In this document: one piece after another, positions 1,899 to 59,889 of the stretch
How positions within the stretch are numbered: position 1 is the stretch's first letter
How the letters are laid out: every line of letters starts with the position of its first letter
Assembly (NCBI GenBank): GCA_020346605.1
Contig: CP070784.1
Span: 1,372,292 to 1,436,291 of the forward strand
From: Candidatus Bathyarchaeota archaeon
Lineage (GTDB): Archaea; Thermoproteota; Bathyarchaeia; TCS64
Reading direction: 5' to 3'
Length of the DNA stretch: 64,000 bases
Program-made: the position numbers and the translations under genes
Notes under the pieces: generated by a model
The model's database searches: none
What the model saw: the letters and a program-made list of their open reading frames with translations, nothing else
What the model was told of the DNA's origin: nothing

Positions 1899-1911
1899 TC
1901 TCCCCACAACC

Positions 1912-6462: not shown

Positions 6463-6515
6463 TGGAAGCCAGAGCCGGAATCGAACGGGGTTTCACATCT
6501 CCTCCCTGGCTTCCA
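6463..6515 (-). other. tRNA-like hairpin (acceptor/T-arm-like minihelix)
   Basis: Ten-base perfect complementary arms (6463-6472 and 6506-6515) enclose a sequence that, read on the minus strand, holds GTTCGATTCC, a typical T-loop core. The apparent T stem pairs poorly (three of five pairs) and there is no D or anticodon arm, so this is not a normal tRNA. A nested hairpin (6504-6509 with 6513-6518) competes with the outer stem. The block is flanked by imperfect direct repeats at about 6446-6465 and 6523-6545. It may be a tRNA remnant, a terminator-like structure or a small RNA. Confidence 0.4.
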
Positions 6516-6609
6516 GGGTCTACTTTGGACTGTGCGTTTATCGGGATGATGTCACATCGTTGATGTGTTCCAAGTTACAGAACGTGTGGATTGGACCAGT
6601 TGGTTCCCT

Positions 6610-6867: not shown

Positions 6868-7038
6868 TCTTCTGGGATCCTCTATCAATTACTTTGCAGG
6901 TATGCTATTTCTATGTTTTGTAGTACGTAGAACGCCCGTGAATAGTTCTTGCTCCATGCAACATAGCCACCTGGACAGCAGATGTGTGTTCTAAATCTTT
7001 TATTCCGTGGGTTCCAGTCAATCTCTGGAGTTTCAACC

Positions 7039-7533
7039 ATGCTGGAACTCAGGAGATATCAGGGGGAGGATCTGGTGCCGTGCCGAGGGCTCTGGAGCGA
7101 GTTGACGGAGTGGCACCGCACGATCTACGAGGACCCGACCATCGGAGGGTCCGACCCAGGCAAGTATTTTGACGAGTATCTGGCGAAGGTGGGCGGCGAG
7201 AACCTCTGGGTCGCCGTGCGCGACGGGGCGGTGGTGGGGCTGGCGGGATTGATGGGCGAGGGGGAGGAGGTCGAGGTGGAGCCTGTCGTCGTGAGTGCCC
7301 CGCACCGTGGGAGCGGCGTGGGGTGCATGCTCGTGGAGGAAATGGTCGATGAGGCCCGGAAGAGGGGCGTGAAGTACATGAGCGTGCGGCCCGTTGCGAG
7401 GAACCTGAAGGCGCTCGAGTTCTTCGCCAACCGGGGGTTCGTGAACGTGGGGCATATCGAGCTCTTCATGGACCTTACTGGCGGTAGCTGGAGGAGCGGG
7501 ATCAGGCTCTTCGACCGCGATTACAGTTACTGA
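7039..7533 (+). CDS. GNAT family N-acetyltransferase
   Basis: The protein is 164 residues from the ATG at 7039; the open frame begins earlier, but the upstream residues do not fit the fold. The acetyl-CoA binding motif A is clear (PHRGSGVGCMLVEEM, matching R/QxxGxG/A), followed by a RNLKALEFFANRGF motif B-like segment. GNAT enzymes transfer an acetyl group from acetyl-CoA to an amine; the substrate cannot be predicted. The stop codon is six bases before the end of the convergent amidohydrolase gene. Confidence 0.85.
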   Translation: MLELRRYQGEDLVPCRGLWSELTEWHRTIYEDPTIGGSDPGKYFDEYLAKVGGENLWVAVRDGAVVGLAGLMGEGEEVEVEPVVVSAPHRGSGVGCMLVEEMVDEARKRGVKYMSVRPVARNLKALEFFANRGFVNVGHIELFMDLTGGSWRSGIRLFDRDYSY

Positions 7534-7539
7534 GATGAG

Positions 7540-9171
7540 TTAATCCCCGGCGTGTACCACCTTTCCGTCCATGATGGTGGTGAGAACCCGGATGTCCTTT
7601 ATCCCCTCGACGTCGACCGATGTAATGTCGCCGCTGAGCACGACCATGTCGGCGAGCTTCCCCTTCTCGATGCTGCCTAGCCTGTCCTCGTCGAAGCTGG
7701 CGTAGGCGCCGTTGATCGTATAGGTCCGTACCGCCTCAATGACGTCGACGGCCTGATTCGGGCCGATGGTGTCCCCTCCCTCAGTCCTCCTAGTCACCAT
7801 GGCGTAGATGCCGAGGATCGGGTTACCGTGCCAGGGTCCGCCGCCGTAGTCGCTGTTGCTACTCGCGACGATGCCGCCCTCCTTGAAGCTCCTGTAGGGG
7901 TAGAGCCACTGGCTCCTCTCGGGGCCGAACTGGTACTTGTAGGCGTCCCCGAAGTTCCAGACGTAGTTGGACTCCGCGGCGACCACGCCGAGTTTCTTGA
8001 TCCTCTCCAGCTGCCTGGGCTCACAGTGGGTGCAGTGCTCTATCCTGTGCCTGTGGTCCTCGGCAGGGAGCTCCGCCAGCGCTGCCTCGATGGCGTCCAG
8101 GTTGATGTCGATCGCCCTGTCCCCGATGGAGTGGGTCGCCGACTGCAGCCCCGCCCTGTGGGTCTTGAAGATATACTCCTTCAGGGTCTCGGGCTCCATG
8201 AGGAGGATGCCGAGGCTTTCGGGGTTCCCAGTGCAGGGCTCGTATGTGGCGGCGGTGCCCATGGTGCCCATGCTGTCCAGCGCGAACTTAATCCCTGACA
8301 ACCTTAGCATGTCGTTCCCAAAGCCACCCATCAGGCCAAGGGCTAGCACGTTTTCGTAGTTGTCCACGTTCGGGGCCATGTTGTTGACGTAGAGGCGCAC
8401 CCTGCAGGGGAGCTCACCCTCTCTTAGTAGGCGCTGGAACGTCAGCGTGCTCTCTCTGGTGGCCCCGGCCTCGTGGATCGTAGTTATGCCCCACCCGGAG
8501 AACCGGTTACACCCGAGCCTCACCGCCTCGTAGGGCGTCAGCTCCAGGGGCGGGACGTGGCTGCTCACGAGCCTCGTCGCCGCGCCGCCTCTGAGGACGC
8601 CCGTCGGTTCCCCGGTCTCGGGGTCCAGCTCCACCTCGCCGTACTCGGGGCGGCTGTCCGTAGTCACCCCCGCGATCTCCATCGCCATCGAGTTGGCGAC
8701 GCCGAAGGCCGAGAAGAACAGGAGCACCGGGTTGTCCGGTGCCACCTCGTCGAGCTCCATGCCCGTCGGCGGGCGCTTCTCCCTGAAGCGAGTCCAAAGG
8801 TACCCCCAACCGACAACCCACTCTCCTTTAGGGGTCTCTCTCGCTCGGGCCCCTATACTCTTCTTCACCTCCTCGATGGAGTCGGCGTACTTGATGTCGA
8901 CGTACTCCTTCTCCTTCACTGTGAGGAGGCCCGCTCCCTGGGCATGGACGTGGCTGTCGATGAACCCCGGGAGGACTGTGCGCCCCTCAAGGTCCATGAC
9001 CTCCGTGTCGGGGCCGATCAGCTCTTCTAGGCGACTGGTACTGCCCACACGGATTATCCTATTCCCCCTCACTGCCACGGCCTCTGCCAACGTGTCATCG
9101 CGATCTACGGTTACAACCTTGCCATTCAGGAGAACCATGTCAGCTAGGCTCAGAGCGCTCACAGCATTCAC
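7540..9171 (-). CDS. Amidohydrolase family 3 (YtcJ-like) metal-dependent hydrolase
   Basis: The protein is 543 residues from a GTG at 9171; an ATG at 9138 is an alternative. It has a typical amidohydrolase layout: an N-terminal beta-sandwich strand (VLLNGKVVTVD), the HVH metal motif after GFID, a TIM barrel with HSIGDRA and RIEHCTH segments, and a C-terminal KLADMVVLSGD segment. This is the family of YtcJ and N-substituted formamide deformylase, which hydrolyse amide or related bonds. The true substrate is unknown. A TATA-like element lies just upstream at about 9195-9205 on the minus strand. Confidence 0.88.
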   Translation of the reverse strand: MNAVSALSLADMVLLNGKVVTVDRDDTLAEAVAVRGNRIIRVGSTSRLEELIGPDTEVMDLEGRTVLPGFIDSHVHAQGAGLLTVKEKEYVDIKYADSIEEVKKSIGARARETPKGEWVVGWGYLWTRFREKRPPTGMELDEVAPDNPVLLFFSAFGVANSMAMEIAGVTTDSRPEYGEVELDPETGEPTGVLRGGAATRLVSSHVPPLELTPYEAVRLGCNRFSGWGITTIHEAGATRESTLTFQRLLREGELPCRVRLYVNNMAPNVDNYENVLALGLMGGFGNDMLRLSGIKFALDSMGTMGTAATYEPCTGNPESLGILLMEPETLKEYIFKTHRAGLQSATHSIGDRAIDINLDAIEAALAELPAEDHRHRIEHCTHCEPRQLERIKKLGVVAAESNYVWNFGDAYKYQFGPERSQWLYPYRSFKEGGIVASSNSDYGGGPWHGNPILGIYAMVTRRTEGGDTIGPNQAVDVIEAVRTYTINGAYASFDEDRLGSIEKGKLADMVVLSGDITSVDVEGIKDIRVLTTIMDGKVVHAGD

Positions 9172-9308
9172 CTCTCAGCCACCTATCCACAAATCGCTAT
9201 AATACAATAACGTCAGGGCCCGAATATGAATTCTGGATAGAAGGAGGGAATCGCCGTCTTTATATCTGGATACAACTCTGCTATTCGTATCGATTCGGAG
9301 GAGTCTGT

Positions 9309-9677
9309 TTGTCAAAGATATTCAAGATCGGTGAGGCCCGGAAGGTGGAGACACCCGGCGAAAGGACGATGCACTGGCTCGTGGACAGGGAGCTCGGCGC
9401 CACCAACATGAACGTCGTGATATACGACTTCGAGCCCGGCTACGAGTCCAAGAGGGTCCATTACCACGAGAGGAGGGAGAGCGCCTACATCGCCCTCAAG
9501 GGATCCGGGACGGTGCATCTGAACGGCGAGGAACACCCGATGGAGCCAGAGACCGTCGTCTACCTCTCACCTGGAGACGTGCACGGCGTGGTCGCGGCCG
9601 GAGAGGACGGCTTCACCATGATAGAGGTGTGGTCCCCCGGGGAAAGGGACACAATCTATGTCGATGACGAGAACTGA
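9309..9677 (+). CDS. Single-domain cupin protein
   Basis: The protein is 122 residues. The TTG start is supported by a strong GGAGGAG at 9298-9304 with five bases of spacing. Cupin motif 1 provides His51, His53 and Glu57, and motif 2 (SPGDVH) provides His92, the usual four metal ligands. Cupins of this size include sugar isomerases, dioxygenases and binding proteins, so the activity is unclear. It is upstream of, and on the same strand as, the Ntn hydrolase gene. Confidence 0.85.
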   Translation: MSKIFKIGEARKVETPGERTMHWLVDRELGATNMNVVIYDFEPGYESKRVHYHERRESAYIALKGSGTVHLNGEEHPMEPETVVYLSPGDVHGVVAAGEDGFTMIEVWSPGERDTIYVDDEN

Positions 9678-9727
9678 GCCGAGTGAACTATAAGGGTCCC
9701 CGTCAATGTTGAATTTGAGGGTGCAGT

Positions 9728-10786
9728 TTGCTGCGAGACCGACCAGCCGCACTCATAATCGTCGTCGTAGTTCTTGCCTTGGGCGCCTACTCCCTAGCAA
9801 TGCTCGAACCTCCTTCTCAGGGAGATGAAGACTTGTCCCCGGTCGGTTCCGGCGCCAAACAAACGGATGTCGCCGACACGGGGAGCCTGAGCCCCTCGAA
9901 ACTGGAGAAGGTGGACGACTACCCGCTCTACGTCCTGAGGCTGGAGGGGGACTACGGCTTCTCCGAGTACCTCAGGACGGGCCGCCTCAACTATCGGTTC
10001 AGCGACGGCTCGGGCCACTCCTGCACCTGCTTCACCGCGATGGGAGAGGGGTCCGACCCCCTCTTCGGAAGGAACTTCGACTTCCCCGAGAACCCGGCGC
10101 TCCTGCTGTACACGGACCCCCCGGACGGTTACGCCAGCGTCTCCATGGTGGATCTAGGCTACTTCGGATACGGGATGGGCCGCCTGCCCGATCTGGAGGG
10201 GGACCTGAAGGACCTCAGGATGACCCCCTACCTACCCTTCGACGGAATGAACGAGCACGGCCTCGCCGTGGGTATGGCCGCAATTTCACAGGCAGAACCT
10301 CCCCACGACCCAAGCAAAGGCACGATAGGCGAGATACAGGTGATCCGGCTTCTCCTCGACAGGGCAAGGGACGTGGACGGGGCGTTGGCGCTCCTGGGGG
10401 AGTACAACGTGGAGATGACCGAACCACCCATCCACTACATCGTCGCTGACCGCTCCGGACGCTCCGCGATCGTGGAGTACGTGGATGGCGAGATGGTGGT
10501 CCTCAGGGACGACGACCCGTATCAGGTGATCACCAACTTCATCGTGTACGACTCGGGCGCCCCAGGACTCGCCCCGTGCTCCAGATACAGATCAGCTTAC
10601 AGCGGTCTTCGGGAGGTCGGTGGCACCGTCTCGATGGAGGAGGCGATGGATCTGCTGGAGGGGTCCTCTCAAGAGAGCACCATCTGGTCCACGGTGTACA
10701 ACCTTGAGACCGGCGATCTGAACGTGGCGATGGGTGGGAGATACAAAAGGGTCCATTCCTTCAATGCAACGGTCGCAGAGGATTAA
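9728..10786 (+). CDS. Membrane-anchored linear amide C-N hydrolase (choloylglycine hydrolase-like Ntn hydrolase)
   Basis: The protein is 352 residues from a TTG at 9728. Residues 7-25 form a hydrophobic signal or anchor, so the enzyme is probably outside the cell. An SCTCF segment (Cys99, Cys101) followed by LFGRNFDFP (112-120) matches the Ntn hydrolases related to choloylglycine hydrolase and penicillin acylase, in which an N-terminal Cys becomes the nucleophile after processing. Which Cys is used is not certain. The family cleaves acyl-amide bonds. Its neighbours are a cupin and a flavin oxidoreductase, without clear operon logic. A second secreted Ntn hydrolase (C69) lies at 31.8 kb. Confidence 0.85.
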   Translation: MLRDRPAALIIVVVVLALGAYSLAMLEPPSQGDEDLSPVGSGAKQTDVADTGSLSPSKLEKVDDYPLYVLRLEGDYGFSEYLRTGRLNYRFSDGSGHSCTCFTAMGEGSDPLFGRNFDFPENPALLLYTDPPDGYASVSMVDLGYFGYGMGRLPDLEGDLKDLRMTPYLPFDGMNEHGLAVGMAAISQAEPPHDPSKGTIGEIQVIRLLLDRARDVDGALALLGEYNVEMTEPPIHYIVADRSGRSAIVEYVDGEMVVLRDDDPYQVITNFIVYDSGAPGLAPCSRYRSAYSGLREVGGTVSMEEAMDLLEGSSQESTIWSTVYNLETGDLNVAMGGRYKRVHSFNATVAED

Positions 10787-10876
10787 CCACAAACACCAAT
10801 TCGACGAAGAAAACAGCCCGGAGAGCCTCGTCAAACTATTTAAGCAAGCGAGCAGCATTCTTGGCAGGTATTGTAC

Positions 10877-11734
10877 ATGGAGTTCTATCTCTCAGGTCTG
10901 GGTAACATGTACGGGAACCTGGACCACATCAAGAAAGCCGTCGTGGAGGCGGACAGGCTCGGATTCGACGGGGCCCTGATGCCCGACCACTACATGTGGG
11001 GCGCGATGGGGGGCCACGCCGTCCAAGACGGGTACTCCACACTGGAGACTTGGGTGACGCTGACATACCTGGCGGCGAAGACTGAGAACATAAGCCTGGG
11101 CACACTGGTGACGCCGATCCCGTTCAGGAGTCCAGGGATGCTGGCGAAGATGATCTCGACCCTCGATGTCCTGTCCAACGGGCGGGTCGTTCTCGGCGTA
11201 GGGGCCGGATGGTCCCAGGTGGAGTTCGAGGGCTACAGCGAGTGGGACAGACCAGGAGTGAGGGTGAACAAGACCAAGGAGGGCCTCGAACTGATGATCA
11301 GGCTCTGGACAGAGGACAAAGTGACGTTCAAGGGCAAATACTACGAGGCGAAGGGTGCCGTCCTAAAGCCAAAGCCCGTCCAGAAGCCGTACCCCAGGCT
11401 CTTGTTCGGGGGGACCGGGGACAGGATGCTCAGGCTCGCGGGGAGGTACAGTGACATCTGCTACATCCCCATGTGGATGACCAGGGGGAACATCGATGAG
11501 GCGCGGACCAAGGTCAGGACAGCCGCGAAGAAGGCGAACCGCGAGGACAAAGTCGCTTTCATGGCCGGAGCCATGGGCGCGTTAGGCTCTGTCGACGTTG
11601 GGGAGTACTCTAAGATGGTCGAGGCGGCCCAGGAGAGCGGCGCCAGGTACTACATGGTTGGCTTCCCCCAGGGTGAGGGGTACCTAGATGCGATGAAGAG
11701 TTTCGCCAAGGAAGTAATGCCGTCATACCATTGA
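10877..11734 (+). CDS. LLM-class flavin/F420-dependent oxidoreductase
   Basis: The protein is 285 residues from the ATG at 10877; a TTG two codons upstream is possible. It resembles the luciferase-like monooxygenase TIM-barrel family. The strands ISLGTLVTPIPFRSP and GRVVLGVGAGW and the PYPRLLFGGTGDRMLRLAGRY segment are characteristic of F420-dependent members such as Mer and F420-dependent dehydrogenases. Archaea use F420 widely, so F420 rather than FMN is my inference. The substrate is not predictable. A TATA-like element (TATTTAAGC) lies at about 10836. Confidence 0.86.
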   Translation: MEFYLSGLGNMYGNLDHIKKAVVEADRLGFDGALMPDHYMWGAMGGHAVQDGYSTLETWVTLTYLAAKTENISLGTLVTPIPFRSPGMLAKMISTLDVLSNGRVVLGVGAGWSQVEFEGYSEWDRPGVRVNKTKEGLELMIRLWTEDKVTFKGKYYEAKGAVLKPKPVQKPYPRLLFGGTGDRMLRLAGRYSDICYIPMWMTRGNIDEARTKVRTAAKKANREDKVAFMAGAMGALGSVDVGEYSKMVEAAQESGARYYMVGFPQGEGYLDAMKSFAKEVMPSYH

Positions 11735-11874
11735 GAGGGTCGACCGATAACATCCATGGGATGAGGGCGTCTCCTTTGCACACCTTTGTTGAGAGCGTGG
11801 TCTAAGCCTTCAAGCGTTACAGATATGCTAGTATTATCTACCCTAGCTCTTTTTAACATGCAGGAAAAGTGAGT

Positions 11875-12099
11875 CTACTCGTCCTCTTCCGCGGTTATTG
11901 GTCCTGTGACGAGTATCTCCACCGCGTACCCCTTAAAAATGGAGGGGATGCTCCTCTCCACCTCGGGAGTCTTGGTCTCGACGGTCACCAGGAGGCAGTC
12001 GACGCCCTCCTTCTCGCTTACGGCGACGCCATTCACCCCCTCAACGTCCATCCACAGCTCCACTGCCTCTGAGAGAGCCTCCTTGATTGTTGCACCCAC
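11875..12099 (-). CDS. Stand-alone N-terminal-domain homologue of the adjacent protease-like protein
   Basis: The protein is 74 residues. Its segment VNGVAVSEK, a DCLLVTVET strand and FKGYAVEILVTGPI align with residues 27-84 of the neighbouring trypsin-like protein (VVGVAAGNK, PCITVFVTH, LKGYKTDVIETGEI). The small protein therefore looks like a free copy of the N-terminal domain that precedes the protease domain in this type of enzyme. It lies 110 bases downstream of that gene on the same strand. Possible roles are inhibitor, chaperone or partner of the protease; none is demonstrated. Confidence 0.7.
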   Translation of the reverse strand: MGATIKEALSEAVELWMDVEGVNGVAVSEKEGVDCLLVTVETKTPEVERSIPSIFKGYAVEILVTGPITAEEDE

Positions 12100-12172
12100 A
12101 GGTTCTCGCCAAGGCTAGTACAACCTGCTCGCGATATAAACATTTTCCGTCAGCGGGTACTAATTCTTCCAC

Positions 12173-12180
12173 AAAAAAAA
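12173..12180 (-). terminator. T8 terminator after the protease-like gene
   Basis: Eight A residues on the plus strand, read as T8 on the minus strand, lie 28 bases after the stop codon of the trypsin-like gene. This fits an archaeal intrinsic terminator, and would partly separate that gene from the 74-residue gene. Confidence 0.55.
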
Positions 12181-12208
12181 GGGGTATTGGTCTCTGTGTT
12201 GATGATGC

Positions 12209-13198
12209 TTAGGGGTGGAGCCTGATTCCAAGGCGGCTCTGAACCTGTAGTATACTGTTGATAATGGTGACCCGGGAGGAGCCGGCGAAAAGGAGCCCCA
12301 CAGCCCCCTCGCTGATGTCGCAGACGAGGCTCCCTGAGTCTCCGCCTGCGGACATATTCGACGTCACGATCTGGTCTGCGAAGCGGGCTATCCGTCCCCC
12401 TCCATAGTTGACGTTGACAGTGGCATGAAGAGCGATGATCCTCCCTGTCGTGAAGTTCGTCGTCCTGCCGGTCTTCTCGACGATGTCCCCGACCCTGGGG
12501 TTGCTCTTCACCTGTTTCACGTATCCTATCCAGTAGATCTCCCTGTTCAGGTTGTGGAACTCGCCCTTGGCGATGGCCGCGTCGACGTAGTTCAGTGGCG
12601 TGTAGCCCGGGGCCATGAACCTGATGGGGACGTACCTCGACAGGCGGGCAACGATGTCCCCGGGGACTGTTCCGCCGTCGTAGGGTCCGGGCTGCAGAAT
12701 CGGGTCTCCGATCCGTGCGTTGTTGGAGTTCGCTAGGACGTGGTTGTTGCTCAGGATGTAGTACTTCTCAGGGATGCCGGGGAATGGAAAGAGGTCGTAG
12801 ACGCACGTGGCGACGGTCCCAGCCGTGATCCTGTAGTGGCCTACGCTGAACCCGCCCATGACGGGCCTCACCCTCTGCCTCAGGGTCTCGACGCCGAGGT
12901 CGTCTTTCATGGCCACTTTTTCATCAGTGACGGCGGTGGGACCGGCGAAGATCTCACCTGTTTCGATAACGTCTGTCTTGTAACCCTTGAGCTCTGGGGA
13001 GATCAGGTCCTTACTGCTGAGCTTTTCAGCATCGACCCTATGCGTTACGAACACGGTGATGCATGGCTCGCCTGTGTCGACTTCTTCAGTTATCTTGTTC
13101 CCAGCTGCGACTCCGACGACGTTCTGCTTGCTGAAGAGGTCTTCGTATTCGGTAGAGGCTGCCTCTGCGATTTCCGCATAAACACTTACATCTTCCAA
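12209..13198 (-). CDS. Trypsin-like serine peptidase (Nal1-type), cytoplasmic
   Basis: The protein is 329 residues and lacks a signal peptide. Residues 25-90 form an N-terminal alpha/beta domain. The chymotrypsin-like domain then shows His153 (LSNNHVLA), Asp206 (NYVDAAIA) and Ser288 (AGGDSGS), the complete catalytic triad in the right order. A KTGRTTNFTTGRI motif before the Ser is typical of this peptidase-like family, which is related to plant NAL1. The target is unknown. A short homologue of the N-domain is encoded just downstream. Confidence 0.85.
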   Translation of the reverse strand: MEDVSVYAEIAEAASTEYEDLFSKQNVVGVAAGNKITEEVDTGEPCITVFVTHRVDAEKLSSKDLISPELKGYKTDVIETGEIFAGPTAVTDEKVAMKDDLGVETLRQRVRPVMGGFSVGHYRITAGTVATCVYDLFPFPGIPEKYYILSNNHVLANSNNARIGDPILQPGPYDGGTVPGDIVARLSRYVPIRFMAPGYTPLNYVDAAIAKGEFHNLNREIYWIGYVKQVKSNPRVGDIVEKTGRTTNFTTGRIIALHATVNVNYGGGRIARFADQIVTSNMSAGGDSGSLVCDISEGAVGLLFAGSSRVTIINSILQVQSRLGIRLHP

Positions 13199-13456
13199 TT
13201 TTTTCCCTCACTTTTCCCGCAGTGAAGGCGAGAACTCAGACAGCTAGAATGCCCTTGTCACAGTTAGGCTCGAACAGATCTCCGAGCTTCAGTGGAAGCA
13301 TTCGATTCGAAGAGTTCTCGGAGTTTTTTCTTAAGTTAAAGATATATTTAAAACTTTCATTAAAACGAGCTCGAACGAACATCATCTCATGGAATTCTTC
13401 AGACCCTGCCCAGCGTTTTCAAATACCCGTGCATAGTTAATTGTACAGGCGATCTA
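13199..13456. other. Intergenic region, possible promoter only
   Basis: No gene is seen. An AT-rich stretch at 13328-13365 contains TATATTTAAA, which could be a TATA box for leftward transcription, although it is about 140 bases from the protease-like start codon. Confidence 0.35.
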
Positions 13457-13792
13457 TCACAGAACCTTTTCCAGGTTCTCGGCCTCCCTGATATGGACGT
13501 CCAGGATCTGGGACACGTACTCCGATATCTCGTTGATCTCTTCATCGATGGCCCTCTCGCTCTCCCTCATGTGCAGCCTGAAGCCCAGCAGCTGTAGCGT
13601 GACGAGGCTGCGGTTGACGGAGATGAGCTTGGTGACCTTCATCACGAACTCTCTTAACGGTCCATCGCCAACCTCCTCTGCGAGGCGCAATAGATCTTCC
13701 GACAGCTCACCGCTCAGAGCCTCCAGACGCCTCAGGTATTCATCTAGGACCAATCGTTGTGCTTCGGCGGAGCTGCGGGACCTGTGCTGCAA
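13457..13792 (-). CDS. Hypothetical helical protein
   Basis: The protein is 111 residues from a TTG at 13792; no in-frame ATG occurs before residue 51. It is almost entirely predicted helix, with heptad-like leucines and many charged residues, suggesting a coiled coil or four-helix bundle. I do not recognise the family. It stands alone between AT-rich gaps. Confidence 0.55.
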   Translation of the reverse strand: MQHRSRSSAEAQRLVLDEYLRRLEALSGELSEDLLRLAEEVGDGPLREFVMKVTKLISVNRSLVTLQLLGFRLHMRESERAIDEEINEISEYVSQILDVHIREAENLEKVL

Positions 13793-14013
13793 CGTGGACC
13801 TGAAACGAGATTTACGGGCGTATTTATGGGTTTTGAGAGGTCACGTTTTGGGCAACGACTTACAGACAGCCCAGTAAAGGACTATATTTAACGGCTTCAT
13901 CATGACGATTTGTGATTGATTAGAACCGGCGTCGAGGGAGCTCAGGGCGGCTTCTTAGGATGATCGCCTCCTAAACCTTTTCCCCTCTTGCGACCCACTC
14001 TGATCGAATACGT

Positions 14014-14631
14014 ATGAGGATCAGATTGGTCATACCCATCACAGGCCTCGATGACGCGGCGATCGAACAGCGTCTCCACTACCTCAGGGAGATCGCCGAC
14101 CTGGGCACCCAGGTCGACGCGGTCCATGTAGAGGTGGGGCCGCCCGCCATCGAATCGGAGGCCGACGCCGTCCTCGCGGGCCCCGAGATACTCAGGCTCG
14201 TCAAGGAGGCCGAGGCGGAGGGCTGCGACGCCACCATAATATGGTGCGGGGGAGACCCCGCCCTTGCGGCAGCTCGCGAGATCGTCGACATCCCCGTCAT
14301 CGGCCCAGGCGAGTCGATGAAGACCATAGCATCCGTCCTTGGGAAGAAGGTCCTCAGGGTGACCCCTGACATCCCCGTGCTGGAGATGAGGAAGGACCTT
14401 GAGGCGACCATATCGGCCGTCAGAGACAGGGTCGAGGAAAGGGTGGAGAGGGGGGAGGGAGACTCCTTCATCCTCGGCTGCCTCGCCCTCTGGGGAGTAG
14501 GCAGGGTTATCAGGGAGGAAACTGGTCTCCCCGTCCTGGATGGGGCCGAGGCCTCCCTGAAGATGGCCGAGCTCGCCGTGAAGCTGGGGCTACGCCACAG
14601 CAGATACGCGTATCCGAAAAAGCAGACATGA
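14014..14631 (+). CDS. Aspartate/glutamate or hydantoin racemase family protein
   Basis: The protein is 205 residues from the ATG at 14014. Two cysteines, Cys78 (WCGGDP) and Cys156 (LGCLALWG), occupy the positions of the paired catalytic acid/base cysteines of Asp/Glu and hydantoin racemases. The C-terminal PVLDGAEASLKMAELAVKLGL segment is typical of the hydantoin racemase branch. It lies 58 bases upstream of a class III aminotransferase on the same strand, so the two may act on related amino compounds, though the aminotransferase seems to have its own promoter. Confidence 0.86.
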   Translation: MRIRLVIPITGLDDAAIEQRLHYLREIADLGTQVDAVHVEVGPPAIESEADAVLAGPEILRLVKEAEAEGCDATIIWCGGDPALAAAREIVDIPVIGPGESMKTIASVLGKKVLRVTPDIPVLEMRKDLEATISAVRDRVEERVERGEGDSFILGCLALWGVGRVIREETGLPVLDGAEASLKMAELAVKLGLRHSRYAYPKKQT

Positions 14632-14658
14632 GCCCTCACTAGTTTGGCTCATACCAAA

Positions 14659-14667
14659 CATTATATT
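14659..14667 (+). promoter_or_regulatory. TATA box of the aminotransferase gene
   Basis: ATTATATTC is centred about 27 bases before the ATG at 14690, the spacing expected for a leaderless or near-leaderless archaeal transcript. Confidence 0.55.
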
Positions 14668-14689
14668 CAGAGAAATCCGACTCAGAGCC

Positions 14690-16021
14690 ATGGTCAACGA
14701 GGACTACATCAGGGAGCTGGAGAAGAAGCACGTATACGGTACCTGGAGGTACGAGCACACCTGGAACCCAGTCGTGATCGAGGAGGGCGAGGGGTGCTAC
14801 GTCACCTCTCTGTCGGGCAAGAGATACCTGGACCTCTCCTCCCAGCTCATGTGCAGCAACATAGGCCACCACAGCCAGGCGGTCATCGACGCCATCGCCA
14901 GGCAGGCTGAGAAGCTCTGCTACGCAGCGCCGGGCTTCGCCACCGTCCCAGCCGCACTGCTGGGCCAGAAACTGGCGGAGATCACCCCCGGGGACCTCAA
15001 CAAGAGCTTCCTCACCAACGGCGGCTCAGAGGCCAACGAGGCCGCCATAAAGATAGCCCGGCTCTACACCGGCAAGACCAAGCTGATATCTAGGTACAGG
15101 TCCTATCACGGTGCCTCCTCCGGGGCCATCGCCCTCACCGGGGATCCCAGGACCCAGTACGCCATCGGGATGCCCGGCGTGGTCAGGGCCCCTGACTGCT
15201 ACTGCTATAGGTGCCCCTTCGGCAAGGAGTACCCGGGCTGCGGGATAACCTGCGCGGAGTACGTCGACGAGATCATCAGAATGGAGGGCCCGGGCACTGT
15301 TGCGGGCGTGGTCATAGAGCCCATCGTGGGCTCCAACGGGATCCTCGTCCCACCGGACGAGTACGTCCCGAGGCTCAGGGAGATCTGCGACGAGCACGAA
15401 GCGCTGCTCATCGACGACGAGGTCATGGCCGGGTTCGGGAGGACCGGCAAGATGTTCTGCATTGAGCACTGGGGCGTGGTGCCCGACATCATGTCCATGG
15501 CCAAGGGGATAACGGGCGCCCTCTTCCCAGTCGGCGCCACCATAACCCGCCAGAAGATCGCAGACCACTTCGACCAGCCTGGGAACCTCTTCAGCCACGG
15601 GCAGACATACGCCATGCACCCGCTGGGATGCGCGGCTGCCCTGGCGGCGATCCAGGAGTACGAGGACAAGAACCTGGTGGAGAAAGCCGCCGCGATGGGG
15701 AAGGTGCTGGAGGGGCGGCTCAATGAGCTGGCTGAGGCCCACAAGTCGGTGGGCGAGGTCAGGGGGAAGGGGCTGTTCTGGGGCATCGAGTTGGTCAAGG
15801 ACAGGGGGACCAAGGAGCCCTTCGTGACTAGGAAGCAGAAGTTCGAGCCCAACACGCTGAAGAGGATCAGCGCGGTGGCGATGGAGATGGGGGTCTACGT
15901 GGTCAACATCATCAACATACTGATAGTGGCACCTCCACTGATAACCACCGAGACGGAGATAGACGAAGGCATCAGGGTCCTGGATAAGGTGCTCGAGATC
16001 TCGGACAAGGAAGTTGTGTAG
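14690..16021 (+). CDS. Class III PLP-dependent aminotransferase
   Basis: The protein is 443 residues. The fold-type I features of class III enzymes are present: the TNGGSEANEAAIK loop that binds PLP phosphate (109-121), a DDEVMAGFGRTGKM segment with the PLP-nitrogen Asp, and Lys272 (SMAKGITGA) for the internal aldimine. A Cys-rich insertion (residues 170-188, five cysteines) is unusual and could bind a metal. The family covers GABA, taurine, ornithine and beta-alanine transaminases, so the substrate is unclear. A TATA box suggests independent transcription from the racemase upstream. Confidence 0.92.
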   Translation: MVNEDYIRELEKKHVYGTWRYEHTWNPVVIEEGEGCYVTSLSGKRYLDLSSQLMCSNIGHHSQAVIDAIARQAEKLCYAAPGFATVPAALLGQKLAEITPGDLNKSFLTNGGSEANEAAIKIARLYTGKTKLISRYRSYHGASSGAIALTGDPRTQYAIGMPGVVRAPDCYCYRCPFGKEYPGCGITCAEYVDEIIRMEGPGTVAGVVIEPIVGSNGILVPPDEYVPRLREICDEHEALLIDDEVMAGFGRTGKMFCIEHWGVVPDIMSMAKGITGALFPVGATITRQKIADHFDQPGNLFSHGQTYAMHPLGCAAALAAIQEYEDKNLVEKAAAMGKVLEGRLNELAEAHKSVGEVRGKGLFWGIELVKDRGTKEPFVTRKQKFEPNTLKRISAVAMEMGVYVVNIINILIVAPPLITTETEIDEGIRVLDKVLEISDKEVV

Positions 16022-43532: not shown

Positions 43533-45074
43533 TCAGAAGCCGTAGAGCTGGGAGAACTTGTCTTCGAGGTACTTAAGGAACGGTGTGTAGGTGAGGTTCC
43601 TCCCCGTTATCTTCTTGATGAGGTCTGCGGGGTCGTGGAGGTCTCCGTGTCTGTGGACGTTCTCCACCAGCCAGCCGCCCACCTCCTTGAAGCTCCCCGC
43701 GGCGATCTTCTCCATCATGTCGGGGAGGTCGGCCTTCATCTTGTCGAGCATCATCCCTCCGTAGATGTTGCCCAGGGCGTAGCTGGGGAAGTAGCCGTAG
43801 GAGCCGCCCGCCCAGTGGGTGTCCTGCATCACCCCCTCGGAGTCGTGCTGGACCTCGACGCCGAGGTACTCGCGGTACTTCTCGTTCCAGGCCTGTGGAA
43901 GTTCGTCGAATGTGATTCTTCCGGCTAGGAGGTCCCTTTCCATCTCGAAGCGGATGATAATATGGAGGCCGTACGTGATCTCGTCCGCCTCGACGCGTAT
44001 CTTTGAGGGATGGACCCTGTTGATCGCCCAGACGAACTCCGCAAGGTCCACGTCGGAGAGCGCGTCTCCTGTCAACTTCTTCAGCTCTGGGAGGAAGTGG
44101 CTCCAGAACTGGGTGCTGCGGCCTATCATGTTCTCCACGAAGCGGGACTGGGACTCGTGGATCCCCATGCTGCTGGCGGTCCCCACGGGCTGGTACATCC
44201 ACTCGCCGGGGAGCCCCTGCTCGTAGAGGGCGTGGCCCCCCTCGTGGAGCACGGAGAAGACGCTAGAGGCGAACCTCTCCTCGTGGTAGTGGGTGGTGAT
44301 GCGGACGTCGTCGTAGTACCCCGTGGTGAAGGGGTGCTCCGTCTCGTCGATCCTGCCGCCCGCCTCGGGCCCCTTCGTCTTGTAACCTATGAGGTCTGTC
44401 AGAGCCTCTGCTATGTTCCTCTGGGCTTCAACAGAGATACCGCGGTCCATGAAGGATGTGTCCGGCTGACTTTCGGAGTCTCTGCACTTGTCGATGATCT
44501 CGATGAGCCCCTTTCGCATCCCCGTGAAGACTTTGTCTATCATGTCGGCAGTCATGCCGGGCTCGAAGAGGTCGATCAGGGCGTCGTAGGGAGTCGATGT
44601 GCCCTTTACATCCATCAGGATCTCTGCGGCCCTCTTCTTCAGGTCGAAGAGCTTCTCCAGATCGGGCCTGAACATGCCATAGTCCTTGGCCGCCTTCGCC
44701 TTCTTCCAGACATTCACAGTCAACGCCTGCTGCCGGGCCGTCTCCACCACCAGTTCTTCGGGCAACTTGGTGGCCTCGTCGTAGGCCTTCTTCGTGAGGA
44801 AGACGTTCCTCTTCTCGACCTCTCCTAAGCTCCCGTAGTTTGGGTGGTCGATTATCTCGTTGATGAGTTTGCCCTTCTCTGGGTCGGTGAGCATCCTGTG
44901 GCTTATCTTCTCTAGGAGTGCCATCTGCTGGCTCCTGAGGTTTACGCCCCTGGAGGGCATCTTGGTCTCCATGTCCCAGTAGACTATTGAGCCCATGGAC
45001 TGGAGAATGAACAGCTCCTTGGTACTCTCCATCAGCTTGCCGTAGGCGTCGCTGACTTTGCTTTCAACGGGCAC
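43533..45074 (-). CDS. M32 family carboxypeptidase (Taq-type)
   Basis: The protein is 513 residues. The zinc motif HEGGH is at 277-281, preceded by EHPFTTGYYDDVRITTHY, an M32 signature; a downstream HESQSRF supplies the second Glu ligand. These enzymes are metal-dependent carboxypeptidases in the cytoplasm. It is transcribed upstream of taw1 and ten bases before it, so the two may share a transcript. Full length, with no sign of damage. Confidence 0.92.
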   Translation of the reverse strand: MPVESKVSDAYGKLMESTKELFILQSMGSIVYWDMETKMPSRGVNLRSQQMALLEKISHRMLTDPEKGKLINEIIDHPNYGSLGEVEKRNVFLTKKAYDEATKLPEELVVETARQQALTVNVWKKAKAAKDYGMFRPDLEKLFDLKKRAAEILMDVKGTSTPYDALIDLFEPGMTADMIDKVFTGMRKGLIEIIDKCRDSESQPDTSFMDRGISVEAQRNIAEALTDLIGYKTKGPEAGGRIDETEHPFTTGYYDDVRITTHYHEERFASSVFSVLHEGGHALYEQGLPGEWMYQPVGTASSMGIHESQSRFVENMIGRSTQFWSHFLPELKKLTGDALSDVDLAEFVWAINRVHPSKIRVEADEITYGLHIIIRFEMERDLLAGRITFDELPQAWNEKYREYLGVEVQHDSEGVMQDTHWAGGSYGYFPSYALGNIYGGMMLDKMKADLPDMMEKIAAGSFKEVGGWLVENVHRHGDLHDPADLIKKITGRNLTYTPFLKYLEDKFSQLYGF

Positions 45075-45183: not shown

Positions 45184-45816
45184 ATGGGGAATGACGCCGA
45201 GACCATGACCCCAAAGGTAGCAGCGGTCTACGTCGCATCATTCGCCGTGATCGCCTGGTCCCTCACCCTAGTCCCGTCCTCGTGGCTCGAAGCGCTCACA
45301 GCGCAGTACTCATCGGCCACGTTCACCGCCCTGGGTCACTCCTCAAGCTGGGGCGTCCAAGGGGGCCGGAGCTTCCTCACGCTCGTTGGGGAGATGGGGC
45401 CAGTGACCGTCACCATCATCAGAGAGTGCACGGCCATCAACGTCTACTCGGTGATCCTGGGCCTGGTGCTGCCCTTGGACGGAGGGACGGTGGCGAGGAA
45501 GCTGACCAGCGTGGTCCTCTCCGGGGCACTGCTCTTCGCCATGAACGTCTCTAGGATCATGCTGACGGTGTACCTGACCGGGTTCAGCACGCCGCCGTTC
45601 TCGTGGTTCTTCACCGACCCCACCGTCGAGCTCTACCACTACCCCATAAGCTTCGCCTATGGGGTCATTGGCGTCGCGCTCCTCATCCTGATACTGAACA
45701 AGTACACCCTTCCCGAGTTGGGCGACACCCTCGTCGCCATACCGCTCAACCTCAGAAGACTACCGGAGTACGTCAAAAACATCTGCGAAGACAGACCCAA
45801 CAAGCCAGACGCCTGA
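45184..45816 (+). CDS. Archaeosortase/exosortase family membrane protein
   Basis: The protein is 210 residues from the ATG at 45184; a TTG at 45133 would add 17 residues. It has about six transmembrane helices. The exosortase catalytic triad is visible: Cys82 in IIRECTAI, Arg124 in NVSRI and His152 in YHYP. Archaeosortases cut C-terminal sorting signals of surface proteins and attach them to the envelope. Their substrates usually carry a short motif, a transmembrane helix and basic residues at the C-terminus; several proteins at 28.9-33.4 kb have a C-terminal helix and short tail but no recognised PGF-type motif. The gene stands alone. Confidence 0.82.
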   Translation: MGNDAETMTPKVAAVYVASFAVIAWSLTLVPSSWLEALTAQYSSATFTALGHSSSWGVQGGRSFLTLVGEMGPVTVTIIRECTAINVYSVILGLVLPLDGGTVARKLTSVVLSGALLFAMNVSRIMLTVYLTGFSTPPFSWFFTDPTVELYHYPISFAYGVIGVALLILILNKYTLPELGDTLVAIPLNLRRLPEYVKNICEDRPNKPDA

Positions 45817-45931
45817 CAAACCCGACCCCACCAAGATCATCACGAAAACTCTTAAGACCACCCCACAGCGCGCTGACAAGGAGACGGGCTAAAAGAGGGG
45901 GTTCATAGACAAGAAGATATCCTAGACGGTG

Positions 45932-46051
45932 ATGGCGGTGCTGTCCAAGGAGCTTGGGCTGGTGTTAGATATGGAGGTGCAGAACGATCTCAAGGATTGG
46001 AACACAATACGGGATTTCGAGCACAGGTTCGTCGAATCTCTACGTGAATAA
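45932..46051 (+). CDS. Short ORF, possibly an acyl-carrier-protein-like remnant
   Basis: A 39-residue frame from ATG 45932, preceded by an in-frame TAG, ends just at the start of the tRNA-Gln-like sequence. The segment KELGLVLDMEVQNDLKDWNTIRDFEHRFVESL has the helix pattern and W-x-T-I-x-D motif seen near the C-terminal half of acyl carrier proteins, but the phosphopantetheine Ser region is missing. It may be a fragment, a real microprotein, or chance. GC-rich coding-like codon use contrasts with the A/C-rich DNA to its right. Confidence 0.3.
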   Translation: MAVLSKELGLVLDMEVQNDLKDWNTIRDFEHRFVESLRE

Positions 46052-46121
46052 CCCGGGCGAGATTCGAACTCGCCTGAGGGTCCAAAGCCCTCTACCCTCA
46101 TCCACTAAACACCACACTCCG
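46049..46121 (-). pseudogene. Degenerate tRNA-Gln (TTG)-like sequence
   Basis: Read on the minus strand, a perfect T arm (GCGAG, TTCGAAT, CTCGC) and a perfect anticodon arm (GAGGG, CTTTGGA, CCCTC; anticodon TTG) are present. The variable loop is only two bases. The acceptor 3' strand CCGGGTT (46050-46056) does not pair with the sequence where the 5' strand should be (46115-46121), and the D stem pairs badly. No matching 5' strand occurs in the next 250 bases. It looks like a broken tRNA-Gln, or the 3' part of a split or intron-containing one. Confidence 0.5.
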
Positions 46122-46606
46122 CAGAAAACATACCCCACAGACCCACTCTTAGGATAACACATCCAGAAAACAACCCCAACCACCATCAGAGTCCATCCCG
46201 TCATTAACACCGCTCGCGCAACGAGACATCACTCCCGAAACTCCAGCCCCCCTCCGAAAAACGCAAGTGATACAACGGGGGAGGGGGTCTAAAGGCTGAG
46301 TAAGTAAAAAAACACGCCAGCACACGAGAGGACCGTGAAAACGACGCCAATCAGCTCCCATTCAAGGTAAAAACATGGAAAATAACGGCACTAAACAGAC
46401 ATCGCCCACGCCACAGAAATGCGGAAAACGCACCCACAAGCCGAGAAACACAACCTCCCACAAGACCTCACGCAGAGGACACACCACCTCAAAGAAAAAA
46501 TCCCTTTTCATATGTTACCATTACAAGGAGACCGACCCTACCACCCGAAAAACATCTTTAATAGAAGAGCAGACACCCATACAGAACATCCAACGAAGGG
46601 ACCCAA
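46122..46606. other. A/C-rich leader region without a gene
   Basis: Almost 500 bases upstream of the inositol phosphate synthase gene with few T residues on the plus strand. No coding frame is convincing. An 8-bp GC hairpin (46248-46255 with 46280-46287) has a 24-base loop. A TTTAATAG TATA-like element near 46556-46563 lies about 45 bases before the ATG. The strand bias is unlike the surrounding coding DNA. Confidence 0.5.
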
Positions 46607-47677
46607 ATGGGAAAGATACGAGTCGCCATCGCCGGCCTAGGAAGCTGCGCCTCAGCCCTCATCCAGGGCGTAGAGCACTACCGCCACCAGAAGCACGGCC
46701 AGATCCCCGGTCTAATGCACGTCAACTTCGGCGGCTACCACATCGACGACATAGAGTTCGTCGCCGCCTTCGACGTCAACAACCTCAAGATCGGCAAGGA
46801 CATCTCCCAGGCCATATTTGCCAATCCGAACCTCTGCGTCAGGTTCGCCGACGTCCCCGACACAGGCGTCAAGGTACAACCTGGCCCCATCGCCGACGGC
46901 GTCGCCCCCCACATGATCGAGGCATTCCACGTCGACCCCAACCTGAAACCCGTTGACGTCGCAGAGACCCTCAGGCAGAACAAAGCTGACATGCTCATCA
47001 ACTACCTCCCCGTGGGCAGCGCCGAGGGCACCAGGCTCTACGCCGAGGCCGCGCTGGAGGCCAACTGCGCCCTGGTCAACTGCATCCCCGAGTTCATCGC
47101 CTCAGTCCCCCAGTGGAGCAAGAGATTCCAGGAGGCCGGCCTACCCGTCGCAGGCGACGACATCAAGAGTCAGGTGGGCGCCACCATTCTCCACCGCGCC
47201 ATGGCCGAGCTCTTCTACAACAGAGGCGTCCACATCGACTCCACTTACCAGCTCAACATCGGCGGCAACACCGACTTCCTCAACATGACCGTCGAGAACA
47301 GGCTCAAGACCAAGAGGGTCAGCAAGACCCAGGCCATCACCAGCATCATCCCCTACGAGGTCCCCACTCGCATAGGCCCCTCAGACTACGTCCCCTTCCT
47401 CGAGGACCACAAGATCTGCTACATAAGGGTCAACGGCCACGGTTTCGGCAACCTCCCAATAACGTTGGACGCCAAGCTCGTGGTCAACGACTCCCCCAAC
47501 AGCGGCGGAGTCGTCATCGACGTCATCAGGGCAGTGAAGATCGCCCTCGACCGAGGCATCTCGGGCCCCCTCACGGGAATCTCCAGCTACGCCTTCAAGC
47601 ACCCGCCGACGCAGGTCAACGACGAGACGGCGCACAGATGGGTAGAGGAGTTTATCGAGGGGAAGAGAGAAAGATAA
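46607..47677 (+). CDS. Inositol-1-phosphate synthase (archaeal type)
   Basis: The protein is 356 residues. The N-terminal GLGSCASALIQGVEHY loop binds NAD. NCIPEFIASVPQWSKRF, DDIKSQVGATILHRAMAELF and NIGGNTDFLNM are typical of the archaeal/actinobacterial branch of myo-inositol-1-phosphate synthase. It converts glucose-6-phosphate to inositol-1-phosphate, used for archaeal phospholipids (archaetidylinositol) and, in some species, solutes. A GAAGGGA Shine-Dalgarno lies just before the ATG. It converges on TFB, 22 bases away. Confidence 0.93.
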   Translation: MGKIRVAIAGLGSCASALIQGVEHYRHQKHGQIPGLMHVNFGGYHIDDIEFVAAFDVNNLKIGKDISQAIFANPNLCVRFADVPDTGVKVQPGPIADGVAPHMIEAFHVDPNLKPVDVAETLRQNKADMLINYLPVGSAEGTRLYAEAALEANCALVNCIPEFIASVPQWSKRFQEAGLPVAGDDIKSQVGATILHRAMAELFYNRGVHIDSTYQLNIGGNTDFLNMTVENRLKTKRVSKTQAITSIIPYEVPTRIGPSDYVPFLEDHKICYIRVNGHGFGNLPITLDAKLVVNDSPNSGGVVIDVIRAVKIALDRGISGPLTGISSYAFKHPPTQVNDETAHRWVEEFIEGKRER

Positions 47678-47699
47678 AAAACTCGAAAATCGGCCCGGC

Positions 47700-48620
47700 T
47701 CACATGTCAAGTTCGATGTTCAGCTTCTGGGTGAGCTCCTTGTACCTGTTCCGGATGGTCACCTCGGTGACGTGGGCCCCCTTCGCGATCTCGCCCTGCG
47801 TCCGCCTCTCGTCCGTGAGCAGGCTGGCGATGTAGGTCGCCGCAGCGGCGATCCCCGCGGGCCCCCTACCACTGGTCAGCCTCATCTCCGAAGCCTGGTT
47901 TAGGATCATCATCGCGATGTTCTCCGTCTCACCCGACAGAGTCAGCTGGCTCACGAACTTGGAGACGTAGCTCGTTGGATCCACCGGCGGCACCCGGGTC
48001 TGGAGCTTCCTGAGCAAGAACCGGTAGTTCCTCCCCCCCTCCTTCTTGGAGATGTGGGCGGCGTTCGCCACCTCCTCCAGAGTCCTAATGACGTTACACT
48101 GGCGGCACGCCATGTAGATGGAAGCGGCGGCAACCCCCTGGATGGACCTGCCCCTGATCAGCCGCTTCCGGACGACGCGCCTGTAGATCACCGACGAGGT
48201 CTCCAGCACGTTCTTCGGCAGGTTCAGCTTGTACGCCACCTTCGTGAGCTCCGAAAGGGCGAAGGCGAGGTTCCTCTCGGTGGCGCCCGAGACCTTCGAC
48301 CTCCTGTGCCACTTCCTGAGCCTGTAGACGCGGGCCTTCTGGTCTGGCTTTAGCTTGCGCCCGTAAACGTCACGATCGTGCCAGTCGATGATCGTCGAAA
48401 GGCCCTTATCGTGGATCGTCCAAGTGAGCGGCGCACCGACCCTGGTCCGCTTCTCCCTCTGCTCCTCGTCGAAGGCCCTCCACTCCGGGCCATGATCGAA
48501 GAGGGTTGACGAAAGGACATAGCCACAGCGCTCGCAGACGAGCTCTCCGGCCTCGAAATCCCGGATGAGATCAGCGTTTCCACATTCGGGACAACCCGTA
48601 ACTTTCTCACTCTTCATCAT
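47700..48620 (-). CDS. tfb: Transcription initiation factor TFB (TFIIB), first copy
   Basis: The protein is 306 residues from ATG 48620. The zinc ribbon uses Cys10, Cys13, Cys29 and Cys32. The B-finger/reader region (FDEEQREKRTRVGAPLTWTIHDKGLSTIID) and two cyclin folds follow, with GAHVTEVTIRNRYKEL in the second repeat. TFB bridges TBP and RNA polymerase at promoters. It ends a long minus-strand run of genes; Gar1 is 12 bases upstream of its start codon. A second TFB lies at 57.3 kb. Confidence 0.95.
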   Translation of the reverse strand: MMKSEKVTGCPECGNADLIRDFEAGELVCERCGYVLSSTLFDHGPEWRAFDEEQREKRTRVGAPLTWTIHDKGLSTIIDWHDRDVYGRKLKPDQKARVYRLRKWHRRSKVSGATERNLAFALSELTKVAYKLNLPKNVLETSSVIYRRVVRKRLIRGRSIQGVAAASIYMACRQCNVIRTLEEVANAAHISKKEGGRNYRFLLRKLQTRVPPVDPTSYVSKFVSQLTLSGETENIAMMILNQASEMRLTSGRGPAGIAAAATYIASLLTDERRTQGEIAKGAHVTEVTIRNRYKELTQKLNIELDM

Positions 48621-48632
48621 TTCGGTAAACCT

Positions 48633-48878
48633 CTATCTCCTCCCCTTGCCGAGGAAGAGGGCTTCACCGAGAAGCCTCTCCGGGCGTTCGATGCTGGGCT
48701 TCACGGCCACGTAGGGGCCTGAGACTGGGCCGAAGAAATCGAAGACAGTTCCGACCTTCCTGCCACTGGAGTCAACGACAGTTTCGCCGATTTTAACGCC
48801 ACCTTCGGCTCCCAGGATCAGGTTGCCGCTGCTTCCAGAACGGTGCAGGACAGTTCCCAGTCGGATCCTAGGACTCAT
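48633..48878 (-). CDS. gar1: H/ACA RNA-protein component Gar1
   Basis: The protein is 81 residues. It has the Gar1 beta-barrel pattern: RLGTVLHRSGSSGNLIL, IGETVVDSSGRKVGTVFDFFGPVSGPYVAVKP. Gar1 binds Cbf5 in the pseudouridine-guiding H/ACA complex. It lacks eukaryotic Gly/Arg extensions, as expected in archaea. It sits between SRP19 and TFB on the same strand, with short gaps, so the genes probably form an operon. This Gar1-TFB pairing is common in archaea. Confidence 0.9.
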   Translation of the reverse strand: MSPRIRLGTVLHRSGSSGNLILGAEGGVKIGETVVDSSGRKVGTVFDFFGPVSGPYVAVKPSIERPERLLGEALFLGKGRR

Positions 48879-59704: not shown

Positions 59705-59777
59705 AGCCCGGTCGTCTAGCGGTCAAGGATGGGGGCCTCTGGAGCCTCAGACGAGAGTTCGAATCTCTCCCGGGCTA
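59705..59777 (+). tRNA. tRNA-Gln (anticodon CTG)
   Basis: The acceptor AGCCCGG pairs with CCGGGCT. The T arm GAGAG, TTCGAAT, CTCTC and anticodon arm GGGGC, CTCTGGA, GCCTC are intact, and the anticodon CTG reads CAG. An encoded CCA follows (59778-59780). Confidence 0.93.
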
Positions 59778-59889
59778 CCATTTCTCTTGTGATGCAGCTG
59801 GCGCGCGCGGCGGGTGCACATGTATAGGTGGGGGCTCCGGGCCCAAGTGGTTTTTTCCTCGTCGTTCGATGATTCTGTGGTTATTAAGC

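What the first reader, a model, noticed from the sequence alone, without database searches (positions are those of the whole stretch)
46049..46121. Degenerate tRNA-Gln(TTG) with intact anticodon and T arms
The anticodon arm and T arm are perfect, yet the acceptor and D stems do not pair and the variable loop is short. The only complete tRNA-Gln in the window is CTG, which cannot decode CAA. This could be a pseudogene, one half of a split tRNA, or a chimeric sequence.
Basis: partly seen in the sequence, partly recalled or inferred. Interest (0 to 1): 0.55.

Follow-up and report, generated by a model that had tools for sequence, protein, structure and literature searches.

The report
Decayed second copy of tRNA-Gln gene
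A broken, full-length copy of an archaeal glutamine tRNA gene lies in a spot where genes have been rearranged; an intact gene is present elsewhere in the genome, so the copy itself is ordinary, but relatives carry rows of small gene cassettes separated by pieces of this same tRNA.

Summary
On the minus strand, 46118-46049 is a tRNA-Gln(TTG) homologue (Rfam tRNA 24.6 bits, cut-off 29; 60 of 73 positions identical to the genome's intact gene). It is not the only CAA decoder: an intact tRNA-Gln(TTG) lies 481 kb away on the other strand. A search for a separate 5' half found only the two complete tRNA-Gln genes, so a split tRNA is unlikely. It looks like a decayed full-length gene: its upstream 47 bases still match those of a tRNA-Gln copy in a same-genus genome, but the TATA-like motif is gone, the variable loop is 2 nt, and the acceptor stem keeps 3 Watson-Crick and 3 G-U pairs. 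Its 3' end overlaps the stop codon of a broken flavodoxin gene, whose close homologues occur in 4 of 27 family genomes, near tRNA-Gln copies. In two same-genus genomes the flanking genes are adjacent and divergent, with neither sequence between. In relatives tRNA-Gln(TTG) is an integration hotspot: one carries an integrase element there, two carry arrays of tRNA 3' halves every 0.6-1.4 kb. Best reading: pseudogene and relic of that hotspot. The arrays are the more interesting lead.

The parts
46049..46118 (-). decayed full-length tRNA-Gln(TTG) pseudogene (70 nt; 60 of 73 positions identical to the genome's intact copy)
46119..46165 (-). decayed upstream (promoter) region: 35 of 47 bases match the upstream region of the tRNA-Gln(TTG) copy on G002:C3; where the own intact gene reads TTTATAAT (TATA-like, by eye) this copy reads CTAAGAGT
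45875..46051 (+). C-terminal remnant of a Flavodoxin_5-family gene (58 residues, 60% identical to the G013 protein P0001, two internal stops, TAA and TAG); its final stop codon TAA at 46049-46051 overlaps the 3' end of the pseudo-tRNA
45199..45816 (+). exosortase/archaeosortase-family gene (TIGR04178 30.3 bits, cut-off 23); turned round relative to the inositol-phosphate synthase gene when compared with two same-genus genomes
46607..47677 (+). inositol-3-phosphate synthase-like gene, flank of the rearranged spot (83% identical to G001 and G002; TIGR03450 438 bits, under that model's cut-off of 638)
59705..59780 (+). complete tRNA-Gln(CTG)

Best explanation
It is a pseudogene: a second, full-length tRNA-Gln(TTG) gene with its own promoter that has decayed. 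In this archaeal family the 3' half of tRNA-Gln(TTG) is an attachment site that has been used repeatedly by integrating DNA. The copy in the window has an accessory flavodoxin gene butted against its 3' end, as accessory genes are in relatives; both then decayed, and a chromosomal rearrangement left the unit between two genes that are adjacent and divergent in same-genus genomes. Shown: homology, the intact gene elsewhere, the broken flavodoxin overlap, the different gene order, the repeated 3' halves and an integrase element at this tRNA in relatives. Inferred: that integration at the tRNA 3' end placed the flavodoxin gene, that an inversion moved the unit, and that the copy is silent.
For: Intact tRNA-Gln(TTG) on the opposite strand, 481 kb away, in a neighbourhood shared with G002, G004, G009 and G013. 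Upstream homology in register to G002:C3: alignment score 34, reached by 0 of 500 dinucleotide shuffles. TATA-like motif lost, variable loop 2 nt, acceptor stem weakened. Flavodoxin matches of 58% identity or more occur in 4 of 27 family genomes (G000, G002, G011, G013), on stretches with tRNA-Gln copies or 3' halves. In G001 and G002 the two flanking genes are divergent, about 125 bp apart, and no match to the tRNA or the flavodoxin remnant lies in that gap. G012:C25 holds an integrase gene starting inside tRNA-Gln(TTG) and an exact 57-bp repeat of the tRNA 3' part about 8.9 kb away. One complete and 7 partial copies in one orientation on G013:C26, and likewise on G002:C63.
Against: No integrase lies beside the window copy, and G000 has no PF00589 match, though it holds one integrase-like N-terminal region at a tRNA-Met. 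There is no second 3' half elsewhere in the 64-kb window apart from the complete tRNA-Gln(CTG). The upstream similarity to the genome's own intact gene is weaker and not significant by the same test (31 of 47; 167 of 500 shuffles reach the score), and the test also gave low values for G013 (0.010) and G009 (0.022) among 12 regions compared. The inversion partner was not located. Three G-U pairs keep a weak acceptor stem, so loss of function is likely but not proven.
Confidence: 0.82

Rival explanations
1. It is a plain attR scar: only the 3' half of tRNA-Gln was copied when an element integrated, and the 5' half is unrelated DNA that happens to look tRNA-like.
For: The 3' half is nearly intact (44 of 48) while positions 1-25 are much worse (16 of 25); 3'-half copies are common in G013 and G002.
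Against: Homology continues through the 5' half (BLAST 10-73) and 47 bases further upstream in register with a complete tRNA-Gln gene. A 3' scar has no promoter.
Confidence: 0.1
2. It is a divergent but working tRNA-Gln(TTG) or a tRNA-like regulatory RNA that keeps anticodon and T arms under selection.
For: No change falls in the anticodon arm or T arm; 6 of 7 acceptor positions can still pair if G-U is allowed.
Against: 2-nt variable loop, lost TATA-like motif, score below cut-off; no counterpart between the same flanking genes in G001 and G002; an intact copy makes it dispensable. Recent exchange of the 3' att core would explain the same pattern.
Confidence: 0.06
3. It is one half of a split (trans-spliced) tRNA.
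Against: The pattern AACCCGGTNGTNTAGNGGNNAAGG with up to 3 mismatches finds only the two complete tRNA-Gln genes; the window copy has its own degenerate 5' half.
Confidence: 0.02

Closest known systems
Partial and displaced tRNA genes left by integrated elements in Thermococcaceae, incl. PYG1 at tRNA-Gln(TTG) of Pyrococcus yayanosii and the inverted Arg-TCT pair of T. kodakarensis (van der Gulik et al. 2023, PMC9897764; abstract, passages and section 12 read)
   Same: Same isoacceptor as target in PYG1; 3' part repeated (44 bp there); complete and defective copies on opposite strands far apart (about 179 kb there, 481 kb here), explained there by integration followed by inversion.
   Different: The window copy is full length with a recognisable upstream region, not only a fragment, and no element bounded by the two copies was identified.
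Integrase-driven inversions between tRNA genes in Thermococcus (Cossu et al. 2017, PMC5495485; passages read)
   Same: tRNA genes in opposite orientation at inversion breakpoints.
   Different: No PF00589 integrase in the own genome, and the inversion here is inferred, not mapped.
Integrated mobile elements in Thaumarchaeota (PMC6563490; passages read)
   Same: Tyrosine-recombinase elements in the 3' part of tRNA genes; arrays by repeated integration mentioned.
   Different: The relatives' arrays here have intervals of only 0.6-1.4 kb, and no integrase was found among the proteins scanned.
Integrons and CALINs in archaea (Ghaly et al. 2022, PMC9668308; passages read)
   Same: For the arrays in relatives: tandem small cassettes between repeated recombination sites, with no integrase found in the array.
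   Different: Sites are tRNA-Gln 3' halves anchored at a complete tRNA gene; attC folding and IntI were not tested here.

Membership tests
functional tRNA gene | covariance-model score over the family cut-off | tested here: not met
   24.6 bits against 29; ARAGORN does not call it
functional tRNA gene | paired acceptor stem and variable loop of normal length | tested here: not met
   3 WC + 3 GU + 1 mismatch of 7; variable loop 2 nt against 4 in the intact gene
functional tRNA gene | transcribed and charged | not testable with these tools
   no RNA data
split tRNA | a separate matching 5' half elsewhere in the genome | tested here: not met
   one pattern, up to 3 mismatches: only the two complete tRNA-Gln genes match
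tRNA pseudogene (decayed duplicate) | full-length homology to an intact paralogue in the same genome | tested here: met
   60 of 73 positions identical; intact copy at 1899552
tRNA pseudogene (decayed duplicate) | homology extends into the upstream region | tested here: met
   35 of 47 to G002:C3, 0 of 500 shuffles reach the score; to the own intact gene only 31 of 47, not significant
attachment site / integration scar | 3' half of the tRNA preserved next to accessory DNA | tested here: met
   44 of 48 in positions 26-73; flavodoxin remnant overlaps the 3' end
attachment site / integration scar | integrase gene and flanking direct repeat at the locus | tested here: not met
   no PF00589 match in G000; no further 3' half in the window except the complete tRNA-Gln(CTG)
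integron (for the arrays in relatives) | attC sites with the single-strand fold, and IntI | not tested
   repeats are tRNA 3' halves; folding and IntI subfamily were not examined

The most novel reading that the evidence does not exclude
In this archaeal family tRNA-Gln(TTG) anchors integron-like cassette arrays: small, integrase-less cassettes (PIN-domain and MazE-like toxin-antitoxin genes, RelA/SpoT-like, nuclease-like and other candidate defence genes), each ending in a copy of the tRNA 3' half, move between genera one cassette at a time, recombined in trans by integrases like the one on G012:C25. The window copy would be a dead outlying anchor of such an array.
Probability: 0.32. Interest if true: 0.62.

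Novelty: new member of a known kind. Interest (0 to 1): 0.3.

Why it matters
The window feature itself removes a false puzzle: CAA can be read by an ordinary tRNA, and tRNA gene counts should not include this copy. The wider pattern matters more. If tRNA 3' halves serve as cassette boundaries in archaea, genes for defence and toxin-antitoxin pairs could be swapped singly at a tRNA gene without each carrying an integrase, a second route to what integrons do.

Tried and rejected
Rejected: split tRNA; missing CAA decoder; plain 3' scar (upstream homology). A flavodoxin gene as an old chromosomal neighbour of tRNA-Gln was considered and dropped, because matches of 58% identity or more occur in only 4 of 27 family genomes, although many of the 27 are incomplete assemblies.

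Two viral-contig scans for the att core found nothing. The position of the neighbouring peptidase gene (43533-45074; its name is recalled) in relatives did not reveal the inversion partner. An Rfam hit to a lncRNA family at 46232-46320 (16.9 bits, cut-off 40) is taken as chance. ARAGORN run with introns allowed reports a 'tRNA-Stop' with a 2.5 kb intron at 46049-48686, taken as an artefact. Pfam found no family for several cassette proteins; PADLOC gave candidate-defence matches for 4 of the 10 proteins given.

Full report
WHAT IS THERE. The feature is on the minus strand, 46118 down to 46049. Rfam's tRNA model matches it over its whole length at 24.6 bits, under the cut-off of 29, and ARAGORN on the window calls only tRNA-Leu(TAG), tRNA-Gly(TCC) and tRNA-Gln(CTG). 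The genome is held as one contig of 2.30 Mb (92.8% complete by the tool's table); a tRNA search gave 42 matches, 35 over the cut-off, ours among the 7 below it. Anticodon arm and T arm pair fully. The acceptor stem has 3 Watson-Crick pairs, 3 G-U pairs and a G-G mismatch; the D stem has 3 of 4 pairs (two G-U); the variable loop has 2 nt.

THE INTACT GENE. A complete tRNA-Gln(TTG) lies at G000:C1:1899552-1899627 on the plus strand, with 7 of 7 acceptor pairs. The window copy (G000:C1:1418409-1418340, minus) is identical to it at 60 of 73 positions; the 10 substitutions are 6 C to T, 2 A to G and 2 C to G, plus 3 deleted bases. Several genes upstream of the intact gene also neighbour tRNA-Gln(TTG) in G002:C63, G004:C64, G009:C1 and, with the block turned round, G013:C26; I take two of them for a cbf5/truB-like and a methyltransferase gene from recall, not from a family search.

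A FULL GENE THAT DECAYED. The 47 bases upstream of the window copy match the upstream region of the tRNA-Gln(TTG) copy on G002:C3 in register (35 of 47; score 34, 0 of 500 shuffles reach it). The own intact gene matches at 31 of 47, not significant by the same test (167 of 500). Six other tRNA-Gln(TTG) upstream regions give 21-23 of 47; among them G013 and G009 had low shuffle values (0.010, 0.022), the rest 0.07 to 0.75, and two unrelated tRNA genes of the window 0.87 and 0.88 (12 regions compared). Where the own intact gene reads TTTATAAT, the window copy reads CTAAGAGT; that this is a TATA-type motif is my reading. Differences from the intact gene crowd into positions 1-25 (9 of 25) against 26-73 (4 of 48), Fisher p 0.008; against the 8 copies compared, the own one included, p is under 0.02 for 6, and 0.08 and 0.17 for G004 and G013. 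These copies are related and the boundary was set after looking, so this is suggestive only. It fits renewal of the 3' half by recombination at an att core.

THE NEIGHBOUR. On the plus strand, 45875-46051 encodes the last 58 residues of a flavodoxin-domain protein (the G013 homologue matches Flavodoxin_5), 60% identical to it, with two internal stops. Its final stop codon is the last three bases of the pseudo-tRNA. Matches of 58% identity or more occur in 4 of 27 family genomes, G000, G002, G011 and G013, on stretches that also carry tRNA-Gln copies or 3' halves; on G002:C69 that half is strongly decayed (21 bases matched, E 0.01). So the gene looks accessory, tied to tRNA-Gln sites.

A REARRANGED SPOT. 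In G001 and G002, the two same-genus genomes held, the inositol-phosphate synthase-like and archaeosortase-like genes are divergent and about 125 bp apart, and neither the tRNA nor the flavodoxin remnant has a match in that gap. In the window the archaeosortase-like gene is turned round and the flavodoxin remnant and pseudo-tRNA lie between. The intact and decayed tRNA copies are on opposite strands 481 kb apart. Published cases in Thermococcaceae are close: an element in tRNA-Gln(TTG) (PYG1), and a complete and partial tRNA-Arg pair separated by an inversion (PMC9897764, section 12 read); and inversions between tRNA genes with an integrase that performs such inversions in vitro (PMC5495485, passages read). 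The inversion here is inferred; its other end was not found.

THE HOTSPOT IN RELATIVES. G012:C25 (8,989 bp) starts with tRNA-Gln(TTG), whose 3' half overlaps the start of a tyrosine integrase reading frame (PF00589, E 3e-16), and ends with an exact 57-bp repeat of the tRNA 3' part at 8890-8946. G013:C26 has one complete tRNA-Gln and 7 partial copies; G002:C63 one complete and 7 partial 3' copies plus one 5' piece; all are in one orientation, at intervals of 0.6-1.4 kb; the weakest of these matches has E 0.011. The 26-base core occurs in 19 of 27 family genomes with up to 3 mismatches, its reversed control in 0 of 27; many of these hits are ordinary tRNA-Gln genes. Pfam was run on 20 proteins from G013:C26, G002:C63 and G002:C33, a few of them outside the arrays: PIN-domain proteins, a MazE-like antitoxin, a RelA/SpoT-like protein, a methyltransferase, a DUF5700 peptidase, the flavodoxin, a cation transporter and unknowns, and no integrase; PADLOC added a CARF_PDDEXK-like nuclease region and candidate defence proteins. 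Small reading frames were not scanned.

DO CASSETTES MOVE? Two stretches are shared between genera g1 (G002) and g8 (G013) at 87.8% over 945 bp and 90.2% over 908 bp, against 70-75% for three long chromosomal stretches of the same genomes. The first runs from repeat to repeat in both genomes, and lies in different places: behind the tRNA-Gln(CTG)/(TTG) pair on G002:C34 and in the TTG array of G013:C26. The second begins at a repeat in both, but ends at the flavodoxin stop in G013 and 83 bp short of the next repeat in G002:C63. On G002:C33 a version of the second stretch continues into the flavodoxin end (85.9% over 1124 bp), and the flavodoxin gene itself is 82.9% identical between G002:C69 and G013, so a larger block, not a single cassette, may have moved there. 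PF00589 proteins exist elsewhere in G002 and G013 (4 and 3 matches) but none in G000, so recombination in trans is possible in the former and shown in none.

LITERATURE. Six searches were seen as listings, cut to the best 6 to 15 papers each; in those listings and in the passages read I saw tRNA-targeting elements and integrons in archaea, but no description of arrays bounded by tRNA halves with single-gene cassettes. The library is open access only, so this is weak evidence of novelty. Arrays by repeated integration are mentioned (PMC6563490, passages), and integrase-less cassette clusters are known for integrons (PMC9668308, passages).

VERDICT. The window feature is a decayed duplicate tRNA-Gln(TTG) at a rearranged, probably former integration site. 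It is ordinary in kind. The cassette arrays in relatives deserve their own study.

Noticed in passing
L094 (G013:C26) 8072-15499; L095 (G002:C63, minus strand) about 11594-4754: Arrays of tRNA-Gln(TTG) 3' halves every 0.6-1.4 kb with small cassettes between them; two stretches shared between genera at 88-90% DNA identity against 70-75% background, one of them exactly repeat to repeat.
   Followed up: partly
L101 (G012:C25) 1-8989: Element of about 8.9 kb with a tyrosine integrase whose reading frame starts inside tRNA-Gln(TTG), bounded by an exact 57-bp repeat of the tRNA 3' part.
   Followed up: partly
L094 8072-8147: The complete tRNA-Gln(TTG) of G013 has a 5' half identical to the own intact gene (25 of 25) but a 3' half that differs at 7 of 48 positions and by eye resembles the CTG isoacceptor, as if the 3' half had been exchanged.
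   Followed up: no
L036 5196-5260 (G000:C1:1532195-1532259): Another low-scoring tRNA in the own genome (24.9 bits) resembles tRNA-Thr with anticodon CGT by eye; only Thr(TGT) and Thr(GGT) were called by ARAGORN among the fetched loci.
   Followed up: no
G000:C1:2160316-2160764 (L120, L011): An integrase-like N-terminal region (55% identical to residues 2-142 of the G012 integrase, open frame 330 aa) overlaps the 3' part of a tRNA-Met gene in the own genome, though the PF00589 search found nothing there.
   Followed up: no
window 45199-45816: Exosortase/archaeosortase-family gene beside the pseudo-tRNA (TIGR04178 30.3 bits, cut-off 23).
   Followed up: partly
L099 (G002:C34) 4540-3829, minus strand: tRNA-Gln(CTG) and a tRNA-Gln(TTG) in tandem, followed by further partial copies, in the region syntenic with the window's tRNA-Gln(CTG).
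   Followed up: no
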